From: Chamaea fasciata
Lineage: Eukaryota; Chordata; Aves; Passeriformes; Sylviidae
Direction of reading: 5' to 3'
Assembly: GCA_029207755.1 (NCBI GenBank)
Contig: JARCOQ010000017.1
Span: forward strand, 9,250,945 to 9,314,944
Length of the DNA stretch: 64,000 nucleotides
In this document: positions 13,401 to 64,000 of the stretch, in pieces
How the letters are laid out: each line of letters begins with the position of its first letter
Position numbering within the stretch: the first letter of the stretch is position 1
Notes under the pieces: generated by a model
What the model was told of the DNA's origin: nothing
Seen by the model: only the letters and a program-made list of their open reading frames with translations
Database searches by the model: none
Position numbers and translations under genes: made by a program

Positions 13401-13673
13401 GAAAAGCAACTCCATGGGGAAGCATTTCACTGGTTGGTTGTATGCTCACACTGCCAGTAACCAGAGCGTGTAATATACCTGTGAAATGAGCAGAAGCGTG
13501 TCCTGAGGCTCACACCACTCTCCCCGAGAGCAGCAGCCTGGAGCAGAGCTCTCAGTGTCTTTCTCTGCCGGAAGATGCGCTGTGGCCGTCAGAGGAGCAG
13601 CAGCATCCCTGCAGGTGTGTGGGTGGTGGCTGCACTGATGCCAGTGTCTGTTCCTCTTTTGTCTCCCTGCCAG

Positions 13674-28391: not shown

Positions 28392-28418
28392 GATCAGCAG
28401 AGCAGGAGCGGGTTCCAC
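28392..28418 (-). other. KCNS1: KCNS1 5' UTR part of the first coding exon
   Basis: The exon begins at 28,418 after the acceptor CTCATCCACAG. The 27 bases before the ATG are untranslated. The upstream exon is probably the CpG-island exon ending at 32,898. Confidence 0.75.
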
Positions 28419-33077: not shown

Positions 33078-33119
33078 GATTCCCGATTCCCGATTCCCGA
33101 TTCCCGATTCCCGGTTCCC
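33078..33119. repeat. Heptamer tandem repeat (GATTCCC)5-GGTTCCC
   Basis: Five exact GATTCCC units from 33,078 to 33,112 and one GGTTCCC variant. It lies in the CpG island about 180 bases upstream (minus sense) of the inferred KCNS1 exon-1 donor, so it may be in the 5' UTR or core promoter. Confidence 0.9.
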
Positions 33120-44727: not shown

Positions 44728-45300
44728 TCACACTGAGGAAAGGGAGAGAAAGAAAGAGGTTGGGTCTGGTGCTCACCCCAGCCAGCGTGTTTGTTCAGCA
44801 GTCACCCCCAGCCTGGCCGGACACCCCCCAGCTGGACACTGCTCCCTGCCCAGAGCCACCTCATCCTATCCCGCTCTGCTACCCGTGGGCAGGAGGGGCT
44901 CCTGAGCTCCTACCATAGGAGACGTGGATGACAGGAGATTTGGAGACGCATTTCTTCCCGCAGAAGGTCCGGCAGCACTTCCTGCCGCGGGGGCAGTGCC
45001 GGTCCACCAGGCACTGGTTCCGCGGGTTGTGCAGAGCGCAGGTGAAGCGCACGGGGGGACAGGACCAGGCGCTGCCTGCAAGAGGAGGGACAGGTTTCTC
45101 CAGGCCAGCTGAGGGGCACTGGGGAGATGCTGCCCAGCAAATATCACCCTCTCCTCCTGCAGGATCCATGTGAACATGGCTCCTTCCCAGCACCTGAACT
45201 TTTCCTCCCCGTACCTTATCCCTGGACATCTCCTACCTGTTGGCAGCTCTGCCCAGAGGACGAGCATCCCCACCAGGAGAAGGGCGGCCACCGTCTTCAT
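44728..45300 (-). CDS. Secreted single-WAP-domain protein, 76 residues, three exons
   Basis: Model: exon 1 45,300-45,237, exon 2 45,075-44,914, exon 3 from 44,732. Exon 1 encodes a signal peptide, MKTVAALLLVGMLVLWAELPT. Exon 2, phase 1-1 as usual for WAP exons, encodes the mature domain with eight cysteines in the four-disulfide pattern: WSCPP, FTCAL, NQCLVDRHC, RKCCRTFCGKKC. Exon 3 adds one residue (Val) and then TGA at 44,730-44,728. Donors are CAACAG|GTAGGA and CTATG|GTAGGA. Acceptors are CTCTTGCAG and a pyrimidine-rich CCTTTCCTCAG. WAP proteins of this locus (elafin, SLPI, WFDC12) are secreted protease inhibitors or antimicrobials; the basic mature part (RGRKCCRTFCGKK) fits an antimicrobial role, which is inference. 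Position next to KCNS1 matches WFDC5/WFDC12 in mammals, but one-to-one orthology cannot be claimed. Confidence 0.9.
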
Positions 45301-47460: not shown

Positions 47461-47906
47461 GCCCGGTTCATGGCTCCTCTCAGCTCCGGGCCGGCTCCAG
47501 CCGCTCGGGGTGCCCGGGAGAAGGAAGGAAAGGGGTTCCTGGGAGAAGGAAGGGGGTGCCCGGGAGATGGAAGGGGGTGTCCGCCGCCCAGCCTTGCCGT
47601 CCCAGCGCTGGTGTCTGGTGCCACCTAGTGCAGTGTCATCGATGAGGCTCTGCAGGACCACGCCGGCTCGGCCCTGCTCCCAGATGTAATCCCACGGGAA
47701 AGGACCCTGTGGGGTCTGCCTCTACAGATACCAAGGGTGTACAGATCTCGAAGTGGGACCTGCTCTGTGCACAGGTACCGACAACCCAGCACTCCCAGAC
47801 ATTTCCAGCCCGGGGAACCCGGAGCAAGAGGAAACCACAATTCTGGACATGCTGCCTGTGCCCAAAGCAAATGGAAAGAGAGCTGGGGTGTGAAAAATAA
47901 AGATTG

Positions 47907-47912
47907 TTTATT
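47907..47912 (-). promoter_or_regulatory. Poly(A) signal of array gene copy 1
   Basis: AATAAA on the minus strand, in CTGTAAATAAACAATC. In copies 2-8 the same place reads AATAAG, and their signal lies about 77 bases earlier in the 3' exon, where copy 1 reads ATAGGG instead of AATAAA. Confidence 0.7.
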
Positions 47913-48471
47913 TACAGAAGAGCAGAAACAACAGCGAACTACACCATGTATTTAAACAGTAAGAATCCCTATAACAACAAAAACAAACTGTAAAATGTGT
48001 TAACAAAAGAACCTATATATCAACAATGTATGAAACATATTTACAAAAGGCAAAAACACTCCCTAAAACGTAGAGAAGACTACTGAAGAAAACTCTATAT
48101 ATATCCAGAAGGGTGGCATCCCTGCCCGGCATCTCCATCAGCCCTGGAAGAAAAGCAAGTGACAGGGTCACTCCAGGCAGGCACAGAGGGCTCTTCCCTG
48201 TGCCCCCAGGCAGAGAGGGACTCTGCTGCCAGCACTGAGCCTGGCTGGGGCTGAGGGCTGGGCCCCAGGCAGTGGGACCCAAAGCCTGGCCCAAAGCCAG
48301 CCCAGGGCGGGCTGGGGGTGGTGTTTGTGCCACCAGAACCCAGGGCCCCCCCGGGCACCGTGTCCCTGAGTGGGGACACCCAGCCCAGCCCCAGCCTGGC
48401 AGCAGGGCACCCACTCTGCCTGTGGGCAGGGCATGGCCAGCACCTACCTGTGCTGCTGCTGGGCTCCCTCT

Positions 48472-48927
48472 TCATCCCAAGACCATCTTCTCCTCCTCAC
48501 TTTCCTCATCTACATCCATGTCTTCAATGTAATCCTGCACATCCACCTCCATCGCTTCCTCCATCTCCTCCTGCACATCCACCTCCATCGCTTCCTCCAT
48601 CTCCTCCTGCACATCCACCTCCATCGCTTCCTCCATCTCCTCCTGCACATCCACCTCCATCGCTTCCTCCATCTCCTCCTGCACATCCACCTCCATCGCT
48701 TCCTCCATCTCCTCCTGCACATCCACCTCCATCGCTTCCTCCATCTCCTCCTGCACATCCACCTCCATCGCTTCCTCAGTGTCTGTGCCAGCCTGCATAG
48801 GGAGCAAAACCTCACGGTGGGGTCCCTGTCCCACACCATCCCCACAGAGCTCCAGCCCACCCAGGCACTTGGGGGTGTCCACCTCCATGGAATGGCACTG
48901 TACCTTCATTGGGGCAAAAGTGGGCAT
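48472..48927 (-). CDS. Acidic 12-residue-repeat protein, array copy 1
   Basis: Family not recognised. Favoured model: ATG at 48,927, short exon ending 48,904 (MPTFAPMK, donor AAG|GTACAG), 111-bp intron, acceptor CCCTATGCAG, exon 48,792-48,448 with TGA at 48,474-48,472, then donor CACAG|GTAGGT, a 304-bp intron, acceptor CTTTTCTTCCAG and a noncoding 3' exon from 48,143. The product is 114 residues: AGTDTE, six full and one partial EAMEVDVQEEME repeats, then an acidic tail DYIEDMDVDEESEEEKMVLG. It has no cysteine, no signal peptide and no membrane segment. Met or Val recurs every fourth residue, a stripe suited to a helix. The frame is also open through the intron and upstream to 49,092, so a 206-residue unspliced reading exists. 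The start is uncertain; the coding strand is supported by splice sites and poly(A). Confidence 0.6.
   Translation of the reverse strand: MPTFAPMKVQCHSMEVDTPKCLGGLELCGDGVGQGPHREVLLPMQAGTDTEEAMEVDVQEEMEEAMEVDVQEEMEEAMEVDVQEEMEEAMEVDVQEEMEEAMEVDVQEEMEEAMEVDVQEEMEEAMEVDVQDYIEDMDVDEESEEEKMVLG
48538..48777. repeat. 36-bp minisatellite inside the coding exon, 6.7 copies (and in every unit)
   Basis: Exact 36-bp units, in plus sense CACATCCACCTCCATCGCTT followed by CCTCCATCTCCTCCTG, six full plus 24 bp. All have the same sequence. The same block with the same copy number is at 50,595-50,834, 52,652-52,891, 54,709-54,948, 56,766-57,005, 58,823-59,062, 60,880-61,119 and 62,937-63,176. A degenerate further unit (TACATCCATGTCTTCAATG) precedes it and encodes the DYIEDMDVD tail. 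Confidence 0.97.
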
Positions 48928-49175
48928 CCTGCAGGGATGGATGGCAAGATCCAGGCACCAGAGAGATACCGCTTCTGACAGCAGCGTCAAAGTTGCGCTT
49001 TCCCGCTTTGCCGCGTGCACTGTCAGGTGCACCCTTTGAGCAGGGTGTGGTTCTTCTGGGCTGCAGGACACATCATGGCATTGTGGGTACATTGTTAAGC
49101 GTTGGAACGTTTGGGCACTGTTCCGTTATGACTTACAGGAGTTGCAGGACCGCTCCACTTTGGGCAACAGGGACC
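48928..49175 (-). promoter_or_regulatory. Putative promoter/5' region of the array gene (copy 1; repeated in all units)
   Basis: This ~250-bp stretch lies between the CR1 3' end and the first ATG of the model. It contains a local CpG cluster (GCGGCAAAGCGGGAAAGCGC on minus) and several AACG cores: TAACGG at 49,128-49,123, a perfect MYB-type site, plus CCAACG at 49,105-49,100 and AAACGTTCC nearby. No TATA box was seen. A donor-like CTCCT|GTAAGTC also lies here, so an upstream noncoding exon is possible. Promoter role is inference. Confidence 0.3.
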
Positions 49176-49184
49176 ATTGAATGG

Positions 49185-49620
49185 TCTAATCCTGTCCTGA
49201 TTTTGCTCGGAAAGGCCCCTAAAGTTCATCTTATTCCAACCGGAGCAAACTCCCCCCAGACCAGGTTGCTCAGAGCCTCCTCCAGCCTGGCCTTGCACGT
49301 TCCCAGGGGTGGGGCATCCCCAGCCTCTGTGCACAGCCTGGGCCTGTGCCTCACCACCCTTACTGTAAAATGCCAGTTTCCTTAGGTACAGCCCAAATCG
49401 ACCTCCTGCAGTTGAAAGCCATCCCCCCTTCTCCTCCCACCACAGACCCTGTTGAACACTCTGTCCCCATCTTTCCTGTGGGACCCTTCAAGTCCTGCAC
49501 GGTCACAGCGAGGCGTCCCCATGGCCCTCTCTTCTCCAGCCTGAGCATCCCCCGCTCTCTCTTCATGGGTGGTTATAAAGTAAAACGAAAGCAGGAGCAC
49601 TGCTGGGCTCCTTCCTCCAG
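49185..49620 (-). mobile_element. CR1 LINE 3' fragment in unit 1 (sense on -)
   Basis: In plus sense it shows the usual inverted CR1 pattern: ACCAGGTTGCTCAGAGCCTC, CAGCCTGGCCTTGCACGTTC, GGGGTGGGGCATCCCCAGCC, CCTCACCACCCTTACTGTAA, TTGAAAGCCATCCCCCCTTC, CTCTTCTCCAGCCTGAGCAT. The 3' end (about 49,185) points toward the acidic-repeat gene. It is well diverged from the consensus, so the insertion is far older than the array homogenisation. The left and right ends are approximate. Confidence 0.85.
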
Positions 49621-49714
49621 TCTGGCATCTACCTTCTCCTTCCATGACTCCTGTGTGTGTCTAAGTCATCTCCTTGTCTGCCACTTCAGGAAGCCACACA
49701 AGTCATTTTGATCT

Positions 49715-49787
49715 TGGAAACCTCAGCAAGAAATACTTTATTTTTTTCCTTTCCAGTGCAAACATGTACCATGCATGTCCAAAGCAC
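49715..49787 (-). other. Candidate alternative 3' terminal exon / transcription end (unit 1-2 spacer)
   Basis: Minus strand: a good acceptor CACTCTCCTTGCAG ends at 49,788, followed by about 45 bases and AATAAA at 49,742-49,737. It lies downstream of the copy 2 poly(A) signal, so it could serve as an alternative last exon of copy 2. The same arrangement recurs every 2,057 bp in the other spacers. It may equally be an unused relic. Confidence 0.3.
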
Positions 49788-50008
49788 CTGCAAGGAGAGT
49801 GTGACCTGTCACTGGGACCCTCTGTACTAAAGGATGACCATGGCAACAGCCCCAGGGACCTCCAGCCCCAGGCACCCACAACCCTGCAAACGCTCCCTGC
49901 ACCCAAAGCCAATGCAAGTAGAGCTGGGGTGTGAAAAATAAAGATTGCTTATTTACAGAAGAGCAGCAACAAAAACAAACTATATGAGGCATTTTCAATG
50001 TAAGAATC

Positions 50009-50014
50009 TTTATT
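50009..50014 (-). promoter_or_regulatory. Poly(A) signal of array gene copy 2 (repeated in copies 3-8)
   Basis: AATAAAGATTCTTAC on the minus strand, about 175 bases into the 3' exon that starts at 50,186. The equivalents are at 52,066-52,071, 54,123-54,128, 56,180-56,185, 58,237-58,242, 60,294-60,299 and 62,351-62,356. It is preceded by T/TTG-rich UTR-like sequence. Confidence 0.75.
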
Positions 50015-50528
50015 ACAACAACAGTCTATAAAACGTATTTACATTACAAAAACCTATATAACAATGTATGAACCATACAGAAGAGAACAACAAACTCTGA
50101 AACATATTTACAGATGAAAATGTAACAACAAACTCCAAAACATGTATCCAGAGGGGTGGCATCCCTGCCCGGCATCTCCATCAGCCCTGGAAGAAAAGCA
50201 AGTGACAGGGTCACTCCAGGCAGGCACAGAGGGCTATTCCCTGTGCCCCCAGGCTGGGACACGCTGGCAGAGAGGGACTCTGCTGCCAGCACTGAGCCTG
50301 GCTGGGGCTGAGGGCTGGGCCCCAGGCAGTGGGACCCAAAGCCTGGCCCAAAGCCAGCCCAGGGCGGGCTGGGGGTGGTGTTTGTGCCACCAGAACCCAG
50401 GGCCCCCCCGGGCACCGTGTCCCTGAGTGGGGACACCCAGCCCAGCCCCAGCCTGGCAGCAGGGCACCCACTCTGCCTGTGGGCAGGGCATGGCCAGCAC
50501 CTACCTGTGCTGCTGCTGGGCTCCCTCT

Positions 50529-50984
50529 TCATCCCAAGACCATCTTCTCCTCCTCACTTTCCTCATCTACATCCATGTCTTCAATGTAATCCTGCACATC
50601 CACCTCCATCGCTTCCTCCATCTCCTCCTGCACATCCACCTCCATCGCTTCCTCCATCTCCTCCTGCACATCCACCTCCATCGCTTCCTCCATCTCCTCC
50701 TGCACATCCACCTCCATCGCTTCCTCCATCTCCTCCTGCACATCCACCTCCATCGCTTCCTCCATCTCCTCCTGCACATCCACCTCCATCGCTTCCTCCA
50801 TCTCCTCCTGCACATCCACCTCCATCGCTTCCTCAGTGTCTGTGCCAGCCTGCATAGGGAGCAAAACCTCACGGTGGGGTCCCTGTCCCACACCATCCCC
50901 ACAGAGCTCCAGCCCACCCAGGCACTTGGGGGTGTCCACCTCCATGGAATGGCACTGTACCTTCATTGGGGCAAAAGTGGGCAT
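50529..50984 (-). CDS. Acidic 12-residue-repeat protein, array copy 2
   Basis: Same model as copy 1: ATG 50,984, intron 50,850-50,960, coding exon 50,849-50,505 with stop at 50,531-50,529, intron of 318 bp, 3' exon from 50,186. The predicted 114-residue protein is identical to copy 1. The downstream intron carries 14 bp (CTGGGACACGCTGG) that copy 1 lacks. The 3' UTR differs strongly from copy 1 and uses a different poly(A) signal. Confidence 0.6.
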   Translation of the reverse strand: MPTFAPMKVQCHSMEVDTPKCLGGLELCGDGVGQGPHREVLLPMQAGTDTEEAMEVDVQEEMEEAMEVDVQEEMEEAMEVDVQEEMEEAMEVDVQEEMEEAMEVDVQEEMEEAMEVDVQEEMEEAMEVDVQDYIEDMDVDEESEEEKMVLG

Positions 50985-51241
50985 CCTGCAGGGATGGATG
51001 GCAAGATCCAGGCACCAGAGAGATACCGCTTCTGACAGCAGCGTCAAAGTTGCGCTTTCCCGCTTTGCCGCGTGCACTGTCAGGTGCACCCTTTGAGCAG
51101 GGTGTGGTTCTTCTGGGCTGCAGGACACATCATGGCATTGTGGGTACATTGTTAAGCGTTGGAACGTTTGGGCACTGTTCCGTTATGACTTACAGGAGTT
51201 GCAGGACCGCTCCACTTTGGGCAACAGGGACCATTGAATGG

Positions 51242-51677
51242 TCTAATCCTGTCCTGATTTTGCTCGGAAAGGCCCCTAAAGTTCATCTTATTCCAACCGG
51301 AGCAAACTCCCCCCAGACCAGGTTGCTCAGAGCCTCCTCCAGCCTGGCCTTGCACGTTCCCAGGGGTGGGGCATCCCCAGCCTCTGTGCACAGCCTGGGC
51401 CTGTGCCTCACCACCCTTACTGTAAAATGCCAGTTTCCTTAGGTACAGCCCAAATCGACCTCCTGCAGTTGAAAGCCATCCCCCCTTCTCCTCCCACCAC
51501 AGACCCTGTTGAACACTCTGTCCCCATCTTTCCTGTGGGACCCTTCAAGTCCTGCACGGTCACAGCGAGGCGTCCCCATGGCCCTCTCTTCTCCAGCCTG
51601 AGCATCCCCCGCTCTCTCTTCATGGGTGGTTATAAAGTAAAACGAAAGCAGGAGCACTGCTGGGCTCCTTCCTCCAG
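51242..51677 (-). mobile_element. CR1 LINE 3' fragment in unit 2
   Basis: Copy of the CR1 segment of unit 1, carried by unit duplication rather than by a new insertion. I saw no difference from unit 1 in it. Confidence 0.85.
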
Positions 51678-52585
51678 TCTGGCATCTACCTTCTCCTTCC
51701 ATGACTCCTGTGTGTGTCTAAGTCATCTCCTTGTCTGCCACTTCAGGAAGCCACACAAGTCATTTTGATCTTGGAAACCTCAGCAAGAAATACTTTATTT
51801 TTTTCCTTTCCAGTGCAAACATGTACCATGCATGTCCAAAGCACCTGCAAGGAGAGTGTGACCTGTCACTGGGACCCTCTGTACTAAAGGACGACCATGG
51901 CAACAGCCCCAGGGACCTCCAGCCCCAGGCACCCACAACCCTGCAAACGCTCCCTGCACCCAAAGCCAATGCAAGTAGAGCTGGGGTGTGAAAAATAAAG
52001 ATTGCTTATTTACAGAAGAGCAGCAACAAAAACAAACTATATGAGGCATTTTCAATGTAAGAATCTTTATTACAACAACAGTCTATAAAACGTATTTACA
52101 TTACAAAAACCTATATAACAATGTATGAACCATACAGAAGAGAACAACAAACTCTGAAACATATTTACAGATGAAAATGTAACAACAAACTCCAAAACAT
52201 GTATCCAGAGGGGTGGCATCCCTGCCCGGCATCTCCATCAGCCCTGGAAGAAAAGCAAGTGACAGGGTCACTCCAGGCAGGCACAGAGGGCTATTCCCTG
52301 TGCCCCCAGGCTGGGACACGCTGGCAGAGAGGGACTCTGCTGCCAGCACTGAGCCTGGCTGGGGCTGAGGGCTGGGCCCCAGGCAGTGGGACCCAAAGCC
52401 TGGCCCAAAGCCAGCCCAGGGCGGGCTGGGGGTGGTGTTTGTGCCACCAGAACCCAGGGCCCCCCCGGGCACCGTGTCCCTGAGTGGGGACACCCAGCCC
52501 AGCCCCAGCCTGGCAGCAGGGCACCCACTCTGCCTGTGGGCAGGGCATGGCCAGCACCTACCTGTGCTGCTGCTGGGCTCCCTCT

Positions 52586-53041
52586 TCATCCCAAGACCAT
52601 CTTCTCCTCCTCACTTTCCTCATCTACATCCATGTCTTCAATGTAATCCTGCACATCCACCTCCATCGCTTCCTCCATCTCCTCCTGCACATCCACCTCC
52701 ATCGCTTCCTCCATCTCCTCCTGCACATCCACCTCCATCGCTTCCTCCATCTCCTCCTGCACATCCACCTCCATCGCTTCCTCCATCTCCTCCTGCACAT
52801 CCACCTCCATCGCTTCCTCCATCTCCTCCTGCACATCCACCTCCATCGCTTCCTCCATCTCCTCCTGCACATCCACCTCCATCGCTTCCTCAGTGTCTGT
52901 GCCAGCCTGCATAGGGAGCAAAACCTCACGGTGGGGTCCCTGTCCCACACCATCCCCACAGAGCTCCAGCCCACCCAGGCACTTGGGGGTGTCCACCTCC
53001 ATGGAATGGCACTGTACCTTCATTGGGGCAAAAGTGGGCAT
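52586..53041 (-). CDS. Acidic 12-residue-repeat protein, array copy 3
   Basis: ATG 53,041, intron 52,907-53,017, coding exon 52,906-52,562, stop at 52,588-52,586, 3' exon from 52,243. The predicted protein is identical to copies 1 and 2. The unit-specific base differences lie outside the exon: C at 51,892 in the spacer to its left (downstream on minus) and A at 53,701 in its CR1 part. Confidence 0.6.
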   Translation of the reverse strand: MPTFAPMKVQCHSMEVDTPKCLGGLELCGDGVGQGPHREVLLPMQAGTDTEEAMEVDVQEEMEEAMEVDVQEEMEEAMEVDVQEEMEEAMEVDVQEEMEEAMEVDVQEEMEEAMEVDVQEEMEEAMEVDVQDYIEDMDVDEESEEEKMVLG

Positions 53042-53298
53042 CCTGCAGGGATGGATGGCAAGATCCAGGCACCAGAGAGATACCGCTTCTGACAGCAGCG
53101 TCAAAGTTGCGCTTTCCCGCTTTGCCGCGTGCACTGTCAGGTGCACCCTTTGAGCAGGGTGTGGTTCTTCTGGGCTGCAGGACACATCATGGCATTGTGG
53201 GTACATTGTTAAGCGTTGGAACGTTTGGGCACTGTTCCGTTATGACTTACAGGAGTTGCAGGACCGCTCCACTTTGGGCAACAGGGACCATTGAATGG

Positions 53299-53734
53299 TC
53301 TAATCCTGTCCTGATTTTGCTCGGAAAGGCCCCTAAAGTTCATCTTATTCCAACCGGAGCAAACTCCCCCCAGACCAGGTTGCTCAGAGCCTCCTCCAGC
53401 CTGGCCTTGCACGTTCCCAGGGGTGGGGCATCCCCAGCCTCTGTGCACAGCCTGGGCCTGTGCCTCACCACCCTTACTGTAAAATGCCAGTTTCCTTAGG
53501 TACAGCCCAAATCGACCTCCTGCAGTTGAAAGCCATCCCCCCTTCTCCTCCCACCACAGACCCTGTTGAACACTCTGTCCCCATCTTTCCTGTGGGACCC
53601 TTCAAGTCCTGCACGGTCACAGCGAGGCGTCCCCATGGCCCTCTCTTCTCCAGCCTGAGCATCCCCCGCTCTCTCTTCATGGGTGGTTATAAAGTAAAAC
53701 AAAAGCAGGAGCACTGCTGGGCTCCTTCCTCCAG
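53299..53734 (-). mobile_element. CR1 LINE 3' fragment in unit 3
   Basis: Duplicate of the unit 1 CR1 segment. It has A at 53,701 where all other units have G. Confidence 0.85.
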
Positions 53735-54642
53735 TCTGGCATCTACCTTCTCCTTCCATGACTCCTGTGTGTGTCTAAGTCATCTCCTTGTCTGCCACTT
53801 CAGGAAGCCACACAAGTCATTTTGATCTTGGAAACCTCAGCAAGAAATACTTTATTTTTTTCCTTTCCAGTGCAAACATGTACCATGCATGTCCAAAGCA
53901 CCTGCAAGGAGAGTGTGACCTGTCACTGGGACCCTCTGTACTAAAGGATGACCATGGCAACAGCCCCAGGGACCTCCAGCCCCAGGCACCCACAACCCTG
54001 CAAACGCTCCCTGCACCCAAAGCCAATGCAAGTAGAGCTGGGGTGTGAAAAATAAAGATTGCTTATTTACAGAAGAGCAGCAACAAAAACAAACTATATG
54101 AGGCATTTTCAATGTAAGAATCTTTATTACAACAACAGTCTATAAAACGTATTTACATTACAAAAACCTATATAACAATGTATGAACCATACAGAAGAGA
54201 ACAACAAACTCTGAAACATATTTACAGATGAAAATGTAACAACAAACTCCAAAACATGTATCCAGAGGGGTGGCATCCCTGCCCGGCATCTCCATCAGCC
54301 CTGGAAGAAAAGCAAGTGACAGGGTCACTCCAGGCAGGCACAGAGGTCTATTCCCTGTGCCCCCAGGCTGGGACACGCTGGCAGAGAGGGACTCTGCTGC
54401 CAGCACTGAGCCTGGCTGGGGCTGAGGGCTGGGCCCCAGGCAGTGGGACCCAAAGCCTGGCCCAAAGCCAGCCCAGGGCGGGCTGGGGGTGGTGTTTGTG
54501 CCACCAGAACCCAGGGCCCCCCCGGGCACCGTGTCCCTGAGTGGGGACACCCAGCCCAGCCCCAGCCTGGCAGCAGGGCACCCACTCTGCCTGTGGGCAG
54601 GGCATGGCCAGCACCTACCTGTGCTGCTGCTGGGCTCCCTCT

Positions 54643-55098
54643 TCATCCCAAGACCATCTTCTCCTCCTCACTTTCCTCATCTACATCCATGTCTTCAATG
54701 TAATCCTGCACATCCACCTCCATCGCTTCCTCCATCTCCTCCTGCACATCCACCTCCATCGCTTCCTCCATCTCCTCCTGCACATCCACCTCCATCGCTT
54801 CCTCCATCTCCTCCTGCACATCCACCTCCATCGCTTCCTCCATCTCCTCCTGCACATCCACCTCCATCGCTTCCTCCATCTCCTCCTGCACATCCACCTC
54901 CATCGCTTCCTCCATCTCCTCCTGCACATCCACCTCCATCGCTTCCTCAGTGTCTGTGCCAGCCTGCATAGGGAGCAAAACCTCACGGTGGGGTCCCTGT
55001 CCCACACCATCCCCACAGAGCTCCAGCCCACCCAGGCACTTGGGGGTGTCCACCTCCATGGAATGGCACTGTACCTTCATTGGGGCAAAAGTGGGCAT
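54643..55098 (-). CDS. Acidic 12-residue-repeat protein, array copy 4
   Basis: ATG 55,098, intron 54,964-55,074, coding exon 54,963-54,619, stop at 54,645-54,643, 3' exon from 54,300. Protein identical to the other copies. The intron before the 3' exon carries T at 54,347, a variant shared with copies 7 and 8 but absent from the neighbours 3, 5 and 6. Confidence 0.6.
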   Translation of the reverse strand: MPTFAPMKVQCHSMEVDTPKCLGGLELCGDGVGQGPHREVLLPMQAGTDTEEAMEVDVQEEMEEAMEVDVQEEMEEAMEVDVQEEMEEAMEVDVQEEMEEAMEVDVQEEMEEAMEVDVQEEMEEAMEVDVQDYIEDMDVDEESEEEKMVLG

Positions 55099-55355
55099 CC
55101 TGCAGGGATGGATGGCAAGATCCAGGCACCAGAGAGATACCGCTTCTGACAGCAGCGTCAAAGTTGCGCTTTCCCGCTTTGCCGCGTGCACTGTCAGGTG
55201 CACCCTTTGAGCAGGGTGTGGTTCTTCTGGGCTGCAGGACACATCATGGCATTGTGGGTACATTGTTAAGCGTTGGAACGTTTGGGCACTGTTCCGTTAT
55301 GACTTACAGGAGTTGCAGGACCGCTCCACTTTGGGCAACAGGGACCATTGAATGG

Positions 55356-55791
55356 TCTAATCCTGTCCTGATTTTGCTCGGAAAGGCCCCTAAAGTTCAT
55401 CTTATTCCAACCGGAGCAAACTCCCCCCAGACCAGGTTGCTCAGAGCCTCCTCCAGCCTGGCCTTGCACGTTCCCAGGGGTGGGGCATCCCCAGCCTCTG
55501 TGCACAGCCTGGGCCTGTGCCTCACCACCCTTACTGTAAAATGCCAGTTTCCTTAGGTACAGCCCAAATCGACCTCCTGCAGTTGAAAGCCATCCCCCCT
55601 TCTCCTCCCACCACAGACCCTGTTGAACACTCTGTCCCCATCTTTCCTGTGGGACCCTTCAAGTCCTGCACGGTCACAGCGAGGCGTCCCCATGGCCCTC
55701 TCTTCTCCAGCCTGAGCATCCCCCGCTCTCTCTTCATGGGTGGTTATAAAGTAAAACGAAAGCAGGAGCACTGCTGGGCTCCTTCCTCCAG
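55356..55791 (-). mobile_element. CR1 LINE 3' fragment in unit 4
   Basis: Duplicate of the unit 1 CR1 segment without differences that I could see. Confidence 0.85.
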
Positions 55792-56699
55792 TCTGGCATC
55801 TACCTTCTCCTTCCATGACTCCTGTGTGTGTCTAAGTCATCTCCTTGTCTGCCACTTCAGGAAGCCACACAAGTCATTTTGATCTTGGAAACCTCAGCAA
55901 GAAATACTTTATTTTTTTCCTTTCCAGTGCAAACATGTACCATGCATGTCCAAAGCACCTGCAAGGAGAGTGTGACCTGTCACTGGGACCCTCTGTACTA
56001 AAGGATGACCATGGCAACAGCCCCAGGGACCTCCAGCCCCAGGCACCCACAACCCTGCAAACGCTCCCTGCACCCAAAGCCAATGCAAGTAGAGCTGGGG
56101 TGTGAAAAATAAAGATTGCTTATTTACAGAAGAGCAGCAACAAAAACAAACTATATGAGGCATTTTCAATGTAAGAATCTTTATTACAACAACAGTCTAT
56201 AAAACGTATTTACATTACAAAAACCTATATAACAATGTATGAACCATACAGAAGAGAACAACAAACTCTGAAACATATTTACAGATGAAAATGTAACAAC
56301 AAACTCCAAAACATGTATCCAGAGGGGTGGCATCCCTGCCCGGCATCTCCATCAGCCCTGGAAGAAAAGCAAGTGACAGGGTCACTCCAGGCAGGCACAG
56401 AGGGCTATTCCCTGTGCCCCCAGGCTGGGACACGCTGGCAGAGAGGGACTCTGCTGCCAGCACTGAGCCTGGCTGGGGCTGAGGGCTGGGCCCCAGGCAG
56501 TGGGACCCAAAGCCTGGCCCAAAGCCAGCCCAGGGCGGGCTGGGGGTGGTGTTTGTGCCACCAGAACCCAGGGCCCCCCCGGGCACCGTGTCCCCGAGTG
56601 GGGACACCCAGCCCAGCCCCAGCCTGGCAGCAGGGCACCCACTCTGCCTGTGGGCAGGGCATGGCCAGCACCTACCTGTGCTGCTGCTGGGCTCCCTCT

Positions 56700-57155
56700 T
56701 CATCCCAAGACCATCTTCTCCTCCTCACTTTCCTCATCTACATCCATGTCTTCAATGTAATCCTGCACATCCACCTCCATCGCTTCCTCCATCTCCTCCT
56801 GCACATCCACCTCCATCGCTTCCTCCATCTCCTCCTGCACATCCACCTCCATCGCTTCCTCCATCTCCTCCTGCACATCCACCTCCATCGCTTCCTCCAT
56901 CTCCTCCTGCACATCCACCTCCATCGCTTCCTCCATCTCCTCCTGCACATCCACCTCCATCGCTTCCTCCATCTCCTCCTGCACATCCACCTCCATCGCT
57001 TCCTCAGTGTCTGTGCCAGCCTGCATAGGGAGCAAAACCTCACGGTGGGGTCCCTGTCCCACACCATCCCCACAGAGCTCCAGCCCACCCAGGCACTTGG
57101 GGGTGTCCACCTCCATGGAATGGCACTGTACCTTCATTGGGGCAAAAGTGGGCAT
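56700..57155 (-). CDS. Acidic 12-residue-repeat protein, array copy 5
   Basis: ATG 57,155, intron 57,021-57,131, coding exon 57,020-56,676, stop at 56,702-56,700, 3' exon from 56,357. Protein identical to the other copies. C at 56,595 in the last intron is shared only with copy 6. Confidence 0.6.
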   Translation of the reverse strand: MPTFAPMKVQCHSMEVDTPKCLGGLELCGDGVGQGPHREVLLPMQAGTDTEEAMEVDVQEEMEEAMEVDVQEEMEEAMEVDVQEEMEEAMEVDVQEEMEEAMEVDVQEEMEEAMEVDVQEEMEEAMEVDVQDYIEDMDVDEESEEEKMVLG

Positions 57156-57412
57156 CCTGCAGGGATGGATGGCAAGATCCAGGCACCAGAGAGATACCGC
57201 TTCTGACAGCAGCGTCAAAGTTGCGCTTTCCCGCTTTGCCGCGTGCACTGTCAGGTGCACCCTTTGAGCAGGGTGTGGTTCTTCTGGGCTGCAGGACACA
57301 TCATGGCATTGTGGGTACATTGTTAAGCGTTGGAACGTTTGGGCACTGTTCCGTTATGACTTACAGGAGTTGCAGGACCGCTCCACTTTGGGCAACAGGG
57401 ACCATTGAATGG

Positions 57413-57848
57413 TCTAATCCTGTCCTGATTTTGCTCGGAAAGGCCCCTAAAGTTCATCTTATTCCAACCGGAGCAAACTCCCCCCAGACCAGGTTGCTCA
57501 GAGCCTCCTCCAGCCTGGCCTTGCACGTTCCCAGGGGTGGGGCATCCCCAGCCTCTGTGCACAGCCTGGGCCTGTGCCTCACCACCCTTACTGTAAAATG
57601 CCAGTTTCCTTAGGTACAGCCCAAATCGACCTCCTGCAGTTGAAAGCCATCCCCCCTTCTCCTCCCACCACAGACCCTGTTGAACACTCTGTCCCCATCT
57701 TTCCTGTGGGACCCTTCAAGTCCTGCACGGTCACAGCGAGGCGTCCCCATGGCCCTCTCTTCTCCAGCCTGAGCATCCCCCGCTCTCTCTTCATGGGTGG
57801 TTATAAAGTAAAACGAAAGCAGGAGCACTGCTGGGCTCCTTCCTCCAG
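57413..57848 (-). mobile_element. CR1 LINE 3' fragment in unit 5
   Basis: Duplicate of the unit 1 CR1 segment without differences that I could see. Confidence 0.85.
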
Positions 57849-58756
57849 TCTGGCATCTACCTTCTCCTTCCATGACTCCTGTGTGTGTCTAAGTCATCTC
57901 CTTGTCTGCCACTTCAGGAAGCCACACAAGTCATTTTGATCTTGGAAACCTCAGCAAGAAATACTTTATTTTTTTCCTTTCCAGTGCAAACATGTACCAT
58001 GCATGTCCAAAGCACCTGCAAGGAGAGTGTGACCTGTCACTGGGACCCTCTGTACTAAAGGATGACCATGGCAACAGCCCCAGGGACCTCCAGCCCCAGG
58101 CACCCACAACCCTGCAAACGCTCCCTGCACCCAAAGCCAATGCAAGTAGAGCTGGGGTGTGAAAAATAAAGATTGCTTATTTACAGAAGAGCAGCAACAA
58201 AAACAAACTATATGAGGCATTTTCAATGTAAGAATCTTTATTACAACAACAGTCTATAAAACGTATTTACATTACAAAAACCTATATAACAATGTATGAA
58301 CCATACAGAAGAGAACAACAAACTCTGAAACATATTTACAGATGAAAATGTAACAACAAACTCCAAAACATGTATCCAGAGGGGTGGCATCCCTGCCCGG
58401 CATCTCCATCAGCCCTGGAAGAAAAGCAAGTGACAGGGTCACTCCAGGCAGGCACAGAGGGCTATTCCCTGTGCCCCCAGGCTGGGACACGCTGGCAGAG
58501 AGGGACTCTGCTGCCAGCACTGAGCCTGGCTGGGGCTGAGGGCTGGGCCCCAGGCAGTGGGACCCAAAGCCTGGCCCAAAGCCAGCCCAGGGCGGGCTGG
58601 GGGTGGTGTTTGTGCCACCAGAACCCAGGGCCCCCCCGGGCACCGTGTCCCCGAGTGGGGACACCCAGCCCAGCCCCAGCCTGGCAGCAGGGCACCCACT
58701 CTGCCTGTGGGCAGGGCATGGCCAGCACCTACCTGTGCTGCTGCTGGGCTCCCTCT

Positions 58757-59212
58757 TCATCCCAAGACCATCTTCTCCTCCTCACTTTCCTCATCTACAT
58801 CCATGTCTTCAATGTAATCCTGCACATCCACCTCCATCGCTTCCTCCATCTCCTCCTGCACATCCACCTCCATCGCTTCCTCCATCTCCTCCTGCACATC
58901 CACCTCCATCGCTTCCTCCATCTCCTCCTGCACATCCACCTCCATCGCTTCCTCCATCTCCTCCTGCACATCCACCTCCATCGCTTCCTCCATCTCCTCC
59001 TGCACATCCACCTCCATCGCTTCCTCCATCTCCTCCTGCACATCCACCTCCATCGCTTCCTCAGTGTCTGTGCCAGCCTGCATAGGGAGCAAAACCTCAC
59101 GGTGGGGTCCCTGTCCCACACCATCCCCACAGAGCTCCAGCCCACCCAGGCACTTGGGGGTGTCCACCTCCATGGAATGGCACTGTACCTTCATTGGGGC
59201 AAAAGTGGGCAT
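58757..59212 (-). CDS. Acidic 12-residue-repeat protein, array copy 6
   Basis: ATG 59,212, intron 59,078-59,188, coding exon 59,077-58,733, stop at 58,759-58,757, 3' exon from 58,414. Protein identical to the other copies in the favoured model. It shares C at 58,652 with copy 5. It alone has C at 59,312 in the 5' region, which would change His to Gln only if the longer 206-residue reading were real. Confidence 0.6.
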   Translation of the reverse strand: MPTFAPMKVQCHSMEVDTPKCLGGLELCGDGVGQGPHREVLLPMQAGTDTEEAMEVDVQEEMEEAMEVDVQEEMEEAMEVDVQEEMEEAMEVDVQEEMEEAMEVDVQEEMEEAMEVDVQEEMEEAMEVDVQDYIEDMDVDEESEEEKMVLG

Positions 59213-59469
59213 CCTGCAGGGATGGATGGCAAGATCCAGGCACCAGAGAGATACCGCTTCTGACAGCAGCGTCAAAGTTGCGCTTTCCCGCTTTGCCGCG
59301 TGCACTGTCAGCTGCACCCTTTGAGCAGGGTGTGGTTCTTCTGGGCTGCAGGACACATCATGGCATTGTGGGTACATTGTTAAGCGTTGGAACGTTTGGG
59401 CACTGTTCCGTTATGACTTACAGGAGTTGCAGGACCGCTCCACTTTGGGCAACAGGGACCATTGAATGG

Positions 59470-59905
59470 TCTAATCCTGTCCTGATTTTGCTCAGAAAGG
59501 CCCCTAAAGTTCATCTTATTCCAACCGGAGCAAACTCCCCCCAGACCAGGTTGCTCAGAGCCTCCTCCAGCCTGGCCTTGCACGTTCCCAGGGGTGGGGC
59601 ATCCCCAGCCTCTGTGCACAGCCTGGGCCTGTGCCTCACCACCCTTACTGTAAAATGCCAGTTTCCTTAGGTACAGCCCAAATCGACCTCCTGCAGTTGA
59701 AAGCCATCCCCCCTTCTCCTCCCACCACAGACCCTGTTGAACACTCTGTCCCCATCTTTCCTGTGGGACCCTTCAAGTCCTGCACGGTCACAGCGAGGCG
59801 TCCCCATGGCCCTCTCTTCTCCAGCCTGAGCATCCCCCGCTCTCTCTTCATGGGTGGTTATAAAGTAAAACGAAAGCAGGAGCACTGCTGGGCTCCTTCC
59901 TCCAG
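59470..59905 (-). mobile_element. CR1 LINE 3' fragment in unit 6
   Basis: Duplicate of the unit 1 CR1 segment. It has A at 59,494 (G in units 1-5), shared with units 7 and 8. Confidence 0.85.
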
Positions 59906-60813
59906 TCTGGCATCTACCTTCTCCTTCCATGACTCCTGTGTGTGTCTAAGTCATCTCCTTGTCTGCCACTTCAGGAAGCCACACAAGTCATTTTGATCTT
60001 GGAAACCTCAGCAAGAAATACTTTATTTTTTTCCTTTCCAGTGCAAACATGTACCATGCATGTCCAAAGCACCTGCAAGGAGAGTGTGACCTGTCACTGG
60101 GACCCTCTGTACTAAAGGATGACCATGGCAACAGCCCCAGGGACCTCCAGCCCCAGGCACCCACAACCCTGCAAACGCTCCCTGCACCCAAAGCCAATGC
60201 AAGTAGAGCTGGGGTGTGAAAAATAAAGATTGCTTATTTACAGAAGAGCAGCAACAAAAACAAACTATATGAGGCATTTTCAATGTAAGAATCTTTATTA
60301 CAACAACAGTCTATAAAACGTATTTACATTACAAAAACCTATATAACAATGTATGAACCATACAGAAGAGAACAACAAACTCTGAAACATATTTACAGAT
60401 GAAAATGTAACAACAAACTCCAAAACATGTATCCAGAGGGGTGGCATCCCTGCCCGGCATCTCCATCAGCCCTGGAAGAAAAGCAAGTGACAGGGTCACT
60501 CCAGGCAGGCACAGAGGTCTATTCCCTGTGCCCCCAGGCTGGGACACGCTGGCAGAGAGGGACTCTGCTGCCAGCACTGAGCCTGGCTGGGGCTGAGGGC
60601 TGGGCCCCAGGCAGTGGGACCCAAAGCCTGGCTCAAAGCCAGCCCAGGGCGGGCTGGGGGTGGTGTTTGTGCCACCAGAACCCAGGGCCCCCCCGGGCAC
60701 CGTGTCCCTGAGTGGGGACACCCAGCCCAGCCCCAGCCTGGCAGCAGGGCACCCACTCTGCCTGTGGGCAGGGCATGGCCAGCACCTACCTGTGCTGCTG
60801 CTGGGCTCCCTCT

Positions 60814-61269
60814 TCATCCCAAGACCATCTTCTCCTCCTCACTTTCCTCATCTACATCCATGTCTTCAATGTAATCCTGCACATCCACCTCCATCGCTTC
60901 CTCCATCTCCTCCTGCACATCCACCTCCATCGCTTCCTCCATCTCCTCCTGCACATCCACCTCCATCGCTTCCTCCATCTCCTCCTGCACATCCACCTCC
61001 ATCGCTTCCTCCATCTCCTCCTGCACATCCACCTCCATCGCTTCCTCCATCTCCTCCTGCACATCCACCTCCATCGCTTCCTCCATCTCCTCCTGCACAT
61101 CCACCTCCATCGCTTCCTCAGTGTCTGTGCCAGCCTGCATAGGGAGCAAAACCTCACGGTGGGGTCCCTGTCCCACACCATCCCCACAGAGCTCCAGCCC
61201 ACCCAGGCACTTGGGGGTGTCCACCTCCATGGAATGGCACTGTACCTTCATTGGGGCAAAAGTGGGCAT
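60814..61269 (-). CDS. Acidic 12-residue-repeat protein, array copy 7
   Basis: ATG 61,269, intron 61,135-61,245, coding exon 61,134-60,790, stop at 60,816-60,814, 3' exon from 60,471. Protein identical to the other copies. The last intron has T at 60,518 (as copies 4 and 8) and T at 60,633 (as copy 8 only). I found no difference between copies 7 and 8 over their shared length, so they are the most recently duplicated or converted pair. Confidence 0.6.
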   Translation of the reverse strand: MPTFAPMKVQCHSMEVDTPKCLGGLELCGDGVGQGPHREVLLPMQAGTDTEEAMEVDVQEEMEEAMEVDVQEEMEEAMEVDVQEEMEEAMEVDVQEEMEEAMEVDVQEEMEEAMEVDVQEEMEEAMEVDVQDYIEDMDVDEESEEEKMVLG

Positions 61270-61526
61270 CCTGCAGGGATGGATGGCAAGATCCAGGCAC
61301 CAGAGAGATACCGCTTCTGACAGCAGCGTCAAAGTTGCGCTTTCCCGCTTTGCCGCGTGCACTGTCAGGTGCACCCTTTGAGCAGGGTGTGGTTCTTCTG
61401 GGCTGCAGGACACATCATGGCATTGTGGGTACATTGTTAAGCGTTGGAACGTTTGGGCACTGTTCCGTTATGACTTACAGGAGTTGCAGGACCGCTCCAC
61501 TTTGGGCAACAGGGACCATTGAATGG

Positions 61527-61962
61527 TCTAATCCTGTCCTGATTTTGCTCAGAAAGGCCCCTAAAGTTCATCTTATTCCAACCGGAGCAAACTCCCCCCA
61601 GACCAGGTTGCTCAGAGCCTCCTCCAGCCTGGCCTTGCACGTTCCCAGGGGTGGGGCATCCCCAGCCTCTGTGCACAGCCTGGGCCTGTGCCTCACCACC
61701 CTTACTGTAAAATGCCAGTTTCCTTAGGTACAGCCCAAATCGACCTCCTGCAGTTGAAAGCCATCCCCCCTTCTCCTCCCACCACAGACCCTGTTGAACA
61801 CTCTGTCCCCATCTTTCCTGTGGGACCCTTCAAGTCCTGCACGGTCACAGCGAGGCGTCCCCATGGCCCTCTCTTCTCCAGCCTGAGCATCCCCCGCTCT
61901 CTCTTCATGGGTGGTTATAAAGTAAAACGAAAGCAGGAGCACTGCTGGGCTCCTTCCTCCAG
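61527..61962 (-). mobile_element. CR1 LINE 3' fragment in unit 7
   Basis: Duplicate of the unit 1 CR1 segment, with A at 61,551 as in units 6 and 8. Confidence 0.85.
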
Positions 61963-62870
61963 TCTGGCATCTACCTTCTCCTTCCATGACTCCTGTGTGT
62001 GTCTAAGTCATCTCCTTGTCTGCCACTTCAGGAAGCCACACAAGTCATTTTGATCTTGGAAACCTCAGCAAGAAATACTTTATTTTTTTCCTTTCCAGTG
62101 CAAACATGTACCATGCATGTCCAAAGCACCTGCAAGGAGAGTGTGACCTGTCACTGGGACCCTCTGTACTAAAGGATGACCATGGCAACAGCCCCAGGGA
62201 CCTCCAGCCCCAGGCACCCACAACCCTGCAAACGCTCCCTGCACCCAAAGCCAATGCAAGTAGAGCTGGGGTGTGAAAAATAAAGATTGCTTATTTACAG
62301 AAGAGCAGCAACAAAAACAAACTATATGAGGCATTTTCAATGTAAGAATCTTTATTACAACAACAGTCTATAAAACGTATTTACATTACAAAAACCTATA
62401 TAACAATGTATGAACCATACAGAAGAGAACAACAAACTCTGAAACATATTTACAGATGAAAATGTAACAACAAACTCCAAAACATGTATCCAGAGGGGTG
62501 GCATCCCTGCCCGGCATCTCCATCAGCCCTGGAAGAAAAGCAAGTGACAGGGTCACTCCAGGCAGGCACAGAGGTCTATTCCCTGTGCCCCCAGGCTGGG
62601 ACACGCTGGCAGAGAGGGACTCTGCTGCCAGCACTGAGCCTGGCTGGGGCTGAGGGCTGGGCCCCAGGCAGTGGGACCCAAAGCCTGGCTCAAAGCCAGC
62701 CCAGGGCGGGCTGGGGGTGGTGTTTGTGCCACCAGAACCCAGGGCCCCCCCGGGCACCGTGTCCCTGAGTGGGGACACCCAGCCCAGCCCCAGCCTGGCA
62801 GCAGGGCACCCACTCTGCCTGTGGGCAGGGCATGGCCAGCACCTACCTGTGCTGCTGCTGGGCTCCCTCT

Positions 62871-63326
62871 TCATCCCAAGACCATCTTCTCCTCCTCACT
62901 TTCCTCATCTACATCCATGTCTTCAATGTAATCCTGCACATCCACCTCCATCGCTTCCTCCATCTCCTCCTGCACATCCACCTCCATCGCTTCCTCCATC
63001 TCCTCCTGCACATCCACCTCCATCGCTTCCTCCATCTCCTCCTGCACATCCACCTCCATCGCTTCCTCCATCTCCTCCTGCACATCCACCTCCATCGCTT
63101 CCTCCATCTCCTCCTGCACATCCACCTCCATCGCTTCCTCCATCTCCTCCTGCACATCCACCTCCATCGCTTCCTCAGTGTCTGTGCCAGCCTGCATAGG
63201 GAGCAAAACCTCACGGTGGGGTCCCTGTCCCACACCATCCCCACAGAGCTCCAGCCCACCCAGGCACTTGGGGGTGTCCACCTCCATGGAATGGCACTGT
63301 ACCTTCATTGGGGCAAAAGTGGGCAT
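62871..63326 (-). CDS. Acidic 12-residue-repeat protein, array copy 8
   Basis: ATG 63,326, intron 63,192-63,302, coding exon 63,191-62,847, stop at 62,873-62,871, 3' exon from 62,528. The gene model is complete; only the CR1 part of its unit is cut by the window end. Protein identical to the other copies. It carries the same variants as copy 7 (T at 62,575 and 62,690, A at 63,608). Confidence 0.6.
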   Translation of the reverse strand: MPTFAPMKVQCHSMEVDTPKCLGGLELCGDGVGQGPHREVLLPMQAGTDTEEAMEVDVQEEMEEAMEVDVQEEMEEAMEVDVQEEMEEAMEVDVQEEMEEAMEVDVQEEMEEAMEVDVQEEMEEAMEVDVQDYIEDMDVDEESEEEKMVLG

Positions 63327-63583
63327 CCTGCAGGGATGGATGGCAAGATCCAGGCACCAGAGAGATACCGCTTCTGACAGCAGCGTCAAAGTTGCGCTTT
63401 CCCGCTTTGCCGCGTGCACTGTCAGGTGCACCCTTTGAGCAGGGTGTGGTTCTTCTGGGCTGCAGGACACATCATGGCATTGTGGGTACATTGTTAAGCG
63501 TTGGAACGTTTGGGCACTGTTCCGTTATGACTTACAGGAGTTGCAGGACCGCTCCACTTTGGGCAACAGGGACCATTGAATGG

Positions 63584-64000
63584 TCTAATCCTGTCCTGAT
63601 TTTGCTCAGAAAGGCCCCTAAAGTTCATCTTATTCCAACCGGAGCAAACTCCCCCCAGACCAGGTTGCTCAGAGCCTCCTCCAGCCTGGCCTTGCACGTT
63701 CCCAGGGGTGGGGCATCCCCAGCCTCTGTGCACAGCCTGGGCCTGTGCCTCACCACCCTTACTGTAAAATGCCAGTTTCCTTAGGTACAGCCCAAATCGA
63801 CCTCCTGCAGTTGAAAGCCATCCCCCCTTCTCCTCCCACCACAGACCCTGTTGAACACTCTGTCCCCATCTTTCCTGTGGGACCCTTCAAGTCCTGCACG
63901 GTCACAGCGAGGCGTCCCCATGGCCCTCTCTTCTCCAGCCTGAGCATCCCCCGCTCTCTCTTCATGGGTGGTTATAAAGTAAAACGAAAGCAGGAGCACT
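63584..64000 (-). mobile_element. CR1 LINE 3' fragment in unit 8 (cut by the window end)
   Basis: Duplicate of the unit 1 CR1 segment, with A at 63,608. The array clearly continues beyond 64,000. Confidence 0.85.

What the first reader, a model, noticed from the sequence alone, without database searches (positions are those of the whole stretch)
47790..64000. Gene-bearing macrosatellite: eight near-identical 2,057-bp units encoding a novel acidic repeat protein
Seen: eight head-to-tail units, seven at an exact 2,057-bp spacing, open at the right edge. Each has a minus-strand gene model with acceptor, stop, strong donor (CACAG|GTAGGT), second acceptor (TTTTCTTCCAG) and a poly(A) signal. The encoded protein is almost entirely EAMEVDVQEEME repeats. 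Inference: a lineage-specific multicopy gene family kept uniform by unequal crossing-over or gene conversion. I know no family that matches. Identical copy after copy points either to very recent expansion or to selection for dosage.
Basis: partly seen in the sequence, partly recalled or inferred. Interest (0 to 1): 0.88.

Follow-up and report, generated by a model that had tools for sequence, protein, structure and literature searches.

The report
Songbird tandem array of acidic-protein genes
A perching-bird chromosome carries a row of nearly identical small genes for a very acidic, repeat-built protein of unknown role, a family found so far only in perching birds and sitting where mammals keep their semen-protein genes.

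Summary
The array is real. The window holds eight head-to-tail units, seven spacings of exactly 2,057 bp, with 7 variable columns. In the assembly it runs on to 15 copies. It lies between a WAP-domain gene and MATN4-like exons, the place of the semenogelin/WFDC cluster in mammals (mammalian order recalled). Three protein searches gave 40 relatives (E up to 0.1); the 31 with species names come from 13 passerine species. Of the 40, 16 show the predicted exon 1/exon 2 join. The genome has a second, separately homogenised array of 16 copies on another contig, with different inner repeats; there a lost start codon is compensated by a nearby ATG and a one-base deletion, good evidence for translation. 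Both edges of the window's array diverge, so this is concerted evolution rather than simply a young expansion. Function is inferred only: a disordered acidic protein, perhaps a germline charge buffer under Pumilio control. No expression data were available.

The parts
47806..64000 (-). tandem array of 2,057-bp gene units; eight copies in the window (the eighth cut by the window end), 15 in the contig (to about window coordinate 77690)
48904..48927 (-). coding part of exon 1 of the leftmost gene (MPTFAPMK); 5' end of the exon not determined
   Evidence: same exon 1/exon 2 join in 16 of 40 deposited relatives
48793..48903 (-). intron 1, 111 nt, GT..AG, phase 0; open in frame here, but flycatcher and manakin read-through records follow other frames in it
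48448..48792 (-). exon 2: acidic repeat protein, stop codon at 48472-48474, 24 nt of 3' UTR
48533..48777 (-). 36-bp minisatellite, 6.8 copies, coding for EAMEVDVQEEME
48144..48447 (-). intron 2 (304 nt here, 318 nt in the other seven window units)
47890..48143 (-). untranslated exon 3 of the leftmost copy, divergent from internal units; AATAAA at 47912; 3' end approximate
49995..50186 (-). untranslated exon 3 of an internal unit; UGUAAAUA at 50112 and 50043, UUUUAU at 50033, AATAAA at 50014; 3' end approximate
49184..49600 (-). 3' end of a CR1-like LINE upstream of each gene (name and limits recalled or judged by eye; a dispersed copy of part of it lies at 3524-3683)
   Evidence: hits to this part alone on other contigs
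48999..49014 (.). two adjacent E2F-like sites upstream of exon 1, found in 14 units of this array
44733..45300 (-). neighbouring WAP-domain (WFDC-type) gene, left flank of the array; limits approximate
22075..28481 (-). KCNS1-like potassium channel gene (BTB and ion-transport exons; the name KCNS1 is recalled)
13671..13832 (+). last coding exon of STK4 (Mst1 SARAH domain)

Best explanation
A family of short three-exon genes, so far found only in passerines, that encode strongly acidic, disordered repeat proteins and have been amplified into tandem arrays kept uniform by unequal crossing-over and gene conversion. SHOWN from sequence: the array, the gene model, the relatives, the divergent edges, a second separate array in the same genome, the location between a WAP gene and MATN4-like exons. 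STRONGLY INFERRED: the genes are spliced and translated. WEAKLY INFERRED: the mRNA is under Pumilio (perhaps CPEB) translational control, which points to germ cells or early embryo; the protein (pI about 4, 45% D+E, no predicted fold) acts by charge, buffering or chaperoning basic partners such as histones, and copy number sets its dose. I put the gene-family and concerted-evolution part at 0.9, translation at 0.8, germline setting at 0.4, charge-buffer/chaperone action at 0.25.
For: Array and uniformity. Homologues: searches (3 hits; 33; 34), together 40 different proteins, 31 with a species name, 13 species, all passerines (the manakin Lepidothrix looked up, the others recalled). Splicing: 16 of 40 deposited proteins join exon 1 to exon 2 as predicted, 14 read through intron 1, none does both, 10 show neither; a Geospiza model enters exon 3 at the predicted acceptor. 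Translation: in the C15 array the ATG of related copies is ATA, a new ATG lies 2 nt downstream and exon 2 is one base shorter at its start, which restores the acidic frame, in 16 of 16 copies (L019 for comparison); 14 of 16 C15 copies are intact; among four related loci (6.54 and 6.57 Mb, C9, C46) pN is 0.008-0.087 and pS 0.097-0.263, pN below pS in 6 of 6 pairs. Concerted evolution: the left-edge tail matches internal units at 77.8% over 418 positions while the rest of that unit is identical or nearly so; the right-edge copy keeps a flycatcher-like 5' region. 3' UTR: UGUANAUA matches, 3 in an internal unit (2 before the poly(A) signal), 2 in the leftmost copy, 3 in C15, 4 in L019, 3 in each of L022-L025; motif columns have 0.79 pairwise identity, other columns 0.68. 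Acidic, without domain or fold.
Against: No RNA or protein data. Names of the relatives (ASF1-like, LAS1L-like and so on) are automatic. Three of the 40 (P0024, P0038, P0040) gave no pairwise BLASTP alignment to the query in the A2 search. Two of 16 C15 copies share a frameshift. L019, L020, L021 and L026 have a shortened reading frame, and C46 a premature stop; L020, L021 and L026 show no UGUANAUA and no AATAAA in the 1,000 nt after the stop. Coding letters are less conserved than intron 1 (and, in one pair, intron 2/exon 3) read as if coding in 9 of 11 pairs, two at p<0.01 uncorrected. Right-edge and internal copies differ by 5 nonsynonymous and 0 synonymous changes. The E2F-like pair belongs to this array, not to the family. 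The pN/pS comparison may pair repeats that are not orthologous, and pS exceeds flank divergence. UTR and promoter motifs were chosen after seeing the sequence.
Confidence: 0.6

Rival explanations
1. Avian counterpart of the mammalian REST (semenogelin/Svs) genes: a secreted, fast-evolving reproductive protein that arose from a WFDC gene at the same place.
For: Same interval (STK4, KCNS1-like, WAP gene, array, MATN4-like, RBPJL-like, SDC4-like; mammalian order recalled); three exons with an untranslated third exon and a repeat-expanded second exon, as described for REST genes (PMC7556508 and PMC3209443, passages). Some house sparrow records (P0014, P0020, P0021) are deposited with an upstream start and a hydrophobic N-terminus that could be a signal peptide.
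Against: From the ATG used here there is no hydrophobic N-terminus (best 10-residue hydropathy 0.2; 1.07-1.41 for three relatives; 3.07 for the neighbouring WAP gene). Intron 1 is phase 0, not the phase-1 acceptor stated in PMC3209443. Similarity to the local WAP gene is at chance level: 2 of 30 region pairs at p<=0.02, the best 0.005 with 200 shuffles. Acidic, while the major coagulum proteins are described as basic. Copies on other contigs.
Confidence: 0.1
2. Neutral macrosatellite: the gene copies hitch-hike on DNA prone to unequal exchange and the protein has no selected role.
For: Uniformity alone needs no selection; the seven variable columns lie outside coding exons, but so few could do so by chance; frameshifted and shortened copies exist; coding letters diverge as fast as introns.
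Against: The frame and a C-terminal acidic-MVLG-like ending recur among deposited relatives (21 of 40), manakin included; compensated start shift; pN below pS in 6 of 6 pairs of one subfamily.
Confidence: 0.22
3. Noncoding or chromatin role: the arrays act as macrosatellites (as D4Z4 is thought to) and the transcript or DNA matters, not the protein.
For: Tandem arrays on two contigs with related genes but different units.
Against: Inner repeats change by whole 36-bp steps in C17 and by 33- or 30-bp steps in 14 of 16 C15 copies, and the frame is restored after a start shift.
Confidence: 0.07
4. Assembly artefact.
For: No reads could be examined.
Against: Array and both flanks lie in one 15.8-Mb contig, and 11 of 14 anchor-to-anchor units differ; a cluster of 13 hawfinch sequences on one contig.
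Confidence: 0.03

Closest known systems
Uncharacterised passerine proteins: Ficedula LOC101806841, Cyanistes LOC111944444, Lepidothrix LOC108493989, Oenanthe LOC130261381, Passer LOC135284397, zebra finch 'LAS1L-like', Geospiza 'ASF1-like' and others
   Same: Homologous: similar N-terminus, acidic MEVD repeats, MVLG-like ending in 21 of 40, same intron 1 position in 16 of 40.
   Different: The perfect 12-residue repeat was seen only in this array. A search for five of the LOC names found no paper.
Mammalian REST genes (SEMG1/2, Svs2-6) at the WFDC locus
   Same: Location, three-exon layout, untranslated third exon, repeat expansion within exon 2.
   Different: No signal peptide from the ATG used here, other intron phase, acidic instead of basic, no similarity to the local WAP gene above chance. 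No mammalian REST sequence was compared.
Human VCX/VCY (features recalled; only a search listing seen)
   Same: Multicopy genes with a coding minisatellite that gives an acidic repeat.
   Different: Sex-linked, primate; homology was not tested here.
D4Z4-type macrosatellites (features recalled; only a search listing seen)
   Same: Kilobase-scale tandem units each carrying a gene.
   Different: Different gene, introns present, 15 and 16 copies in two separate arrays.

Membership tests
Passerine acidic MEVD-repeat family (unnamed) | short N-terminus like M-x-T-F-x-P-x-K, acidic repeats, acidic-MVLG-like ending | tested here: met
Passerine acidic MEVD-repeat family (unnamed) | intron at the K|A junction | tested here: met
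   (16 of 40 relatives)
REST (semenogelin/Svs) genes | location in the WFDC locus, between a WFDC gene and MATN4 | tested here: met
   (mammalian gene order recalled)
REST (semenogelin/Svs) genes | exon 3 untranslated, stop and a few UTR nucleotides in exon 2 | tested here: met
   definition
REST (semenogelin/Svs) genes | exon 1 encodes a signal peptide | tested here: not met
   (hydropathy only, from the ATG used here; three sparrow records start upstream with a hydrophobic stretch)
REST (semenogelin/Svs) genes | phase-1 acceptor of exon 2 | tested here: not met
   definition. In the C15 array, after the start shift, the junction is phase 1
REST (semenogelin/Svs) genes | nucleotide homology of exons 1 and 3 to WFDC genes | tested here: not met
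   against the neighbouring WAP gene only
REST (semenogelin/Svs) genes | transcription in male accessory tissue | not testable with these tools
   no RNA data
Gene-bearing macrosatellite | kilobase units in tandem, near-identical, each with an intact gene | tested here: met
Histone chaperones (ASF1 and others) suggested by automatic names | recognisable domain or fold | tested here: not met
   no Pfam match at E<=0.01 for six relatives; for the window protein three Pfam matches at E 0.028-0.093, all below cut-off; no PDB sequence match up to E 0.1; AlphaFold model of a zebra finch member pLDDT 55.9, pTM 0.12

The most novel reading that the evidence does not exclude
The same chromosomal interval that bred the semenogelin genes in mammals has independently bred a fast-turnover, repeat-built reproductive gene array in passerines, with repeated amplification on more than one chromosome. 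Arrays with their own unit length and own minisatellite would then be the mark of an arms race (sperm competition, meiotic drive or conflict with the songbird germline-restricted chromosome) fought by copy number of an acidic chaperone-like protein under Pumilio control.
Probability: 0.15. Interest if true: 0.85.

Novelty: new variant of a known kind. Interest (0 to 1): 0.6.

Why it matters
A gene family with dozens of copies in one bird genome and relatives in at least 13 passerine species is scattered under wrong or empty automatic names. Two arrays of related genes, each homogenised to its own unit, are a natural pair for measuring concerted evolution, with edge copies preserving older states. 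If germline expression is confirmed, copy number could be tested directly as a trait.

Tried and rejected
Rfam (0 matches at gathering scores) and tRNA search (0). A WFDC/REST origin was tested by local alignment with shuffles against the neighbouring WAP gene and not supported. Reading intron 1 as coding was rejected because flycatcher and manakin read-through records follow other frames there. E2F-like sites looked promising but the pair belongs to this array. Structure prediction gave no fold, so no fold search was run. A coding-versus-intron identity test was inconclusive. Loci L001-L008 and L034 were fetched and not analysed; L033 only in the E2F count. Literature: the listings (20 of 68 shown; 20 of 25; 20 of 296; none; none) show no title on this family. 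PMC4377847 (abstract and passages) and PMC10172847 (passages) describe other genes in what I saw; PMC4377847 also mentions further de novo genes in a supplementary table that could not be opened here, so this family may be listed there. The first tblastn failed on a wrong option and was redone.
Full report
OBSERVATION. The array is real and far beyond chance. A unit anchor recurs eight times at seven spacings of exactly 2,057 bp. Seven of 2,057 columns vary among the eight window units, the last of which is cut by the window end; the mean pairwise difference of the seven full units is 2.67 bases. Each unit holds a perfect 36-bp tandem of 6.8 copies. Homology begins at 47806.

GENE MODEL. On the minus strand each unit reads: exon 1 with ATG at 48927 and eight codons; donor at 48903; a 111-nt intron; exon 2 from 48792; stop; 24 nt further the donor CACAG|GTAGGT; intron 2 of 304 nt in the leftmost and 318 nt in the other seven window units; acceptor TTTTCTTCCAG; untranslated exon 3. 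All eight window copies encode the same 114-residue protein of pI about 4 and 45% D+E. The poly(A) signal is AATAAA at 50014 in an internal unit and at 47912 in the leftmost copy. The start codon is inferred: three house sparrow records (P0014, P0020, P0021) are deposited with an upstream start and a hydrophobic N-terminus, while three zebra finch records and one hawfinch record start at the ATG used here. Upstream of exon 1 lies the 3' end of a CR1-like element (name recalled): part of it matches a dispersed copy at 3524-3683 (67% over 160 bp), and hits on contigs C3, C5 and C7 cover this part of the unit. CR1-like translations also precede the gene in Vidua, Lepidothrix and Hirundo records, so this neighbour seems old.

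RELATIVES. Three protein searches (3 hits at E<=0.001, only the 7,988 candidates sharing most words scored; 33 hits at E<=0.1, only 7,985 scored; 34 hits at E<=0.1 among 5,782 candidates) gave 40 different proteins. Thirty-one carry a species name, from 13 species, all passerines (looked up for the manakin; otherwise recalled); nine carry no name. Three (P0024, P0038, P0040) gave no pairwise alignment. Absence from other birds was tested only by these capped searches. The manakin (family Pipridae; suboscine recalled) puts the family at or before the oscine-suboscine split. One hawfinch cluster stands for 13 sequences on one contig. Names such as ASF1-like, LAS1L-like, HDT2-like or RRP1 look like products of acidic composition. 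In 16 of the 40 the exon 1/exon 2 join is as predicted, 14 read through intron 1, none does both. Manakin isoform X2 is spliced and X1 retains intron 1. A Geospiza record enters exon 3 at the predicted acceptor, though from an earlier donor.

THE SAME GENOME. The window lies in contig C17 at 9250945-9314944. Reading on, the array has 15 copies, twelve spacings of 2,057 and two of 2,021 bp, that is one 36-bp repeat less. Thirteen copies encode the 114-residue protein and one a 102-residue form; the right-edge copy encodes another 102-residue form with five amino-acid changes. Eleven of 14 anchor-to-anchor units are distinct. A second array of 16 copies lies in contig C15 at 17.074-17.118 Mb, spacings 2,859-2,957 bp, with inner repeats of 33 bp (DDTMDMEVDVQ) and 30 bp (DTQEEMEVDV); 14 of 16 are intact, two share a frameshift. 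Further copies lie at C17 6.54, 6.57, 12.22, 13.43 and 14.08-14.28 Mb, C9 and C46, with partial hits on C44 and C70. Of those I read, 6.54, 6.57 Mb and C9 have long frames, C46 a premature stop, and L019, L020, L021 and L026 a shortened frame. Counts are lower bounds: 38 of 1,243 candidates were scored, and the window's own array was not listed.

CONCERTED EVOLUTION. The left-edge copy is identical to internal units down to 48209, has small gaps just beyond, is again identical at 48164-48115, and then falls to 60-72% in most 50-column bins through its 3' exon (46 of 50 in one bin); overall 77.8% over 418 positions. The right-edge copy shares exons and introns with the array but has another 5' region, whose translation (SESIPVTLIVTRCLTLPSVLKG) resembles the flycatcher record. 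Of four shared variants three are in neighbouring units only and one is also in a distant unit. Edges that escape homogenisation are what unequal crossing-over predicts. The array is therefore probably old and continually renewed; I did not date it.

IS IT TRANSLATED? The best evidence is in the C15 array: where L019 has ATG, C15 has ATA, the same change creates an ATG two bases on, and exon 2 is one base shorter at its start, which restores the acidic frame, in 16 of 16 copies. That L019 is the older state is inferred. Among 6.54, 6.57 Mb, C9 and C46, pN is 0.008-0.087 and pS 0.097-0.263, lower pN in 6 of 6 pairs; repeats may be mispaired, and pS exceeds flank divergence. Against: coding letters are less conserved than noncoding stretches read as if coding in 9 of 11 pairs, two at p<0.01 uncorrected, and edge versus internal copies differ by 5 nonsynonymous and 0 synonymous changes, with 0 of 111 and 1 of 324 intron differences. 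The protein seems held to a composition and, in 21 of 40 relatives, to a C-terminal ending rather than to exact letters.

REGULATION. The 3' UTR carries UGUAAAUA, the Pumilio-type motif (recalled): in an internal unit two before the poly(A) signal and one after it; in the leftmost copy two, one of them overlapping AATAAA; three in C15, four in L019, three UGUANAUA in each of L022-L025; none in L020, L021 and L026. In a 7-sequence alignment motif columns have 0.79 pairwise identity and others 0.68. For two UTRs 0 of 2,000 shuffles reached the observed number (expected about 0.04), but the motif was chosen after seeing the sequence. An internal unit also has UUUUAU 13 nt before AATAAA. Two adjacent E2F-like sites occur in 14 units of this array; there is none in the 47.8 kb to its left and 0-2 single matches in each of the other long loci, so the pair is not a family trait.

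PLACE. In order: STK4, a KCNS1-like gene, a WAP gene, the array, VWA and EGF-like exons of MATN4 type at 82.2-84.2 kb, an RBPJL-like exon at 100.4 kb and a syndecan tail of SDC4 type at 117.6 kb (paralogue names from recalled gene order). One WAP-like motif, that of the known gene, appeared in a 144-kb pattern scan; a genome-wide WAP search did not complete. This is the interval of the mammalian semenogelin/WFDC genes (order recalled). REST genes share the three-exon layout with an untranslated last exon (PMC7556508, PMC3209443; passages), but signal peptide, phase and similarity to the local WAP gene fail for this array. I treat it as convergence of place and layout, not membership.

HOW IT MAY WORK. 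The protein has no Pfam domain above cut-off, the family no PDB relative, and a zebra finch member no predicted fold. The simplest mechanism is charge: a small disordered polyanion binding basic partners, dose set by copy number. Germline use is suggested only by the UTR motifs. Both are inference.

VERDICT. A real, uncharacterised passerine gene family in at least two homogenised arrays in this genome, of unknown function; a new variant of the known class of gene-bearing tandem arrays.

Noticed in passing
contig C17 of the own genome, 14.08-14.28 Mb (L020, L021): Shortened family copies recur at about 45.4-kb spacing (14081410, 14126786, 14172162, 14217540) and then 64.7 kb, which looks like a segmental duplication.
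   Followed up: partly
window 32000-34000: A 72% G+C, CpG-rich stretch with several short tandem repeats (units of 7-59 bp) between the KCNS1-like gene and the WAP gene.
   Followed up: no
window 47912 and 50014: Poly(A) signal switched between copies: the leftmost copy keeps a distal AATAAA and lacks the proximal one; an internal unit has the proximal AATAAA and a broken distal one.
   Followed up: partly
L031, contig C15 17103523 and 17106416: Two neighbouring C15 copies share the same frameshift, so a broken copy has itself probably been duplicated.
   Followed up: partly
protein collection records P0007, P0009, P0011, P0014, P0017, P0026, P0035: Automatic names (ASF1-like, LAS1L-like, TRIM44-like, RRP1, ZBED3-like, ring-infected erythrocyte surface antigen-like, HDT2-like) are given to members of one acidic family.
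   Followed up: yes
window 48085-48143 and the Geospiza record P0007: The Geospiza model leaves exon 2 before the C-terminal ending and continues in frame into exon 3, a possible alternative splice form.
   Followed up: no
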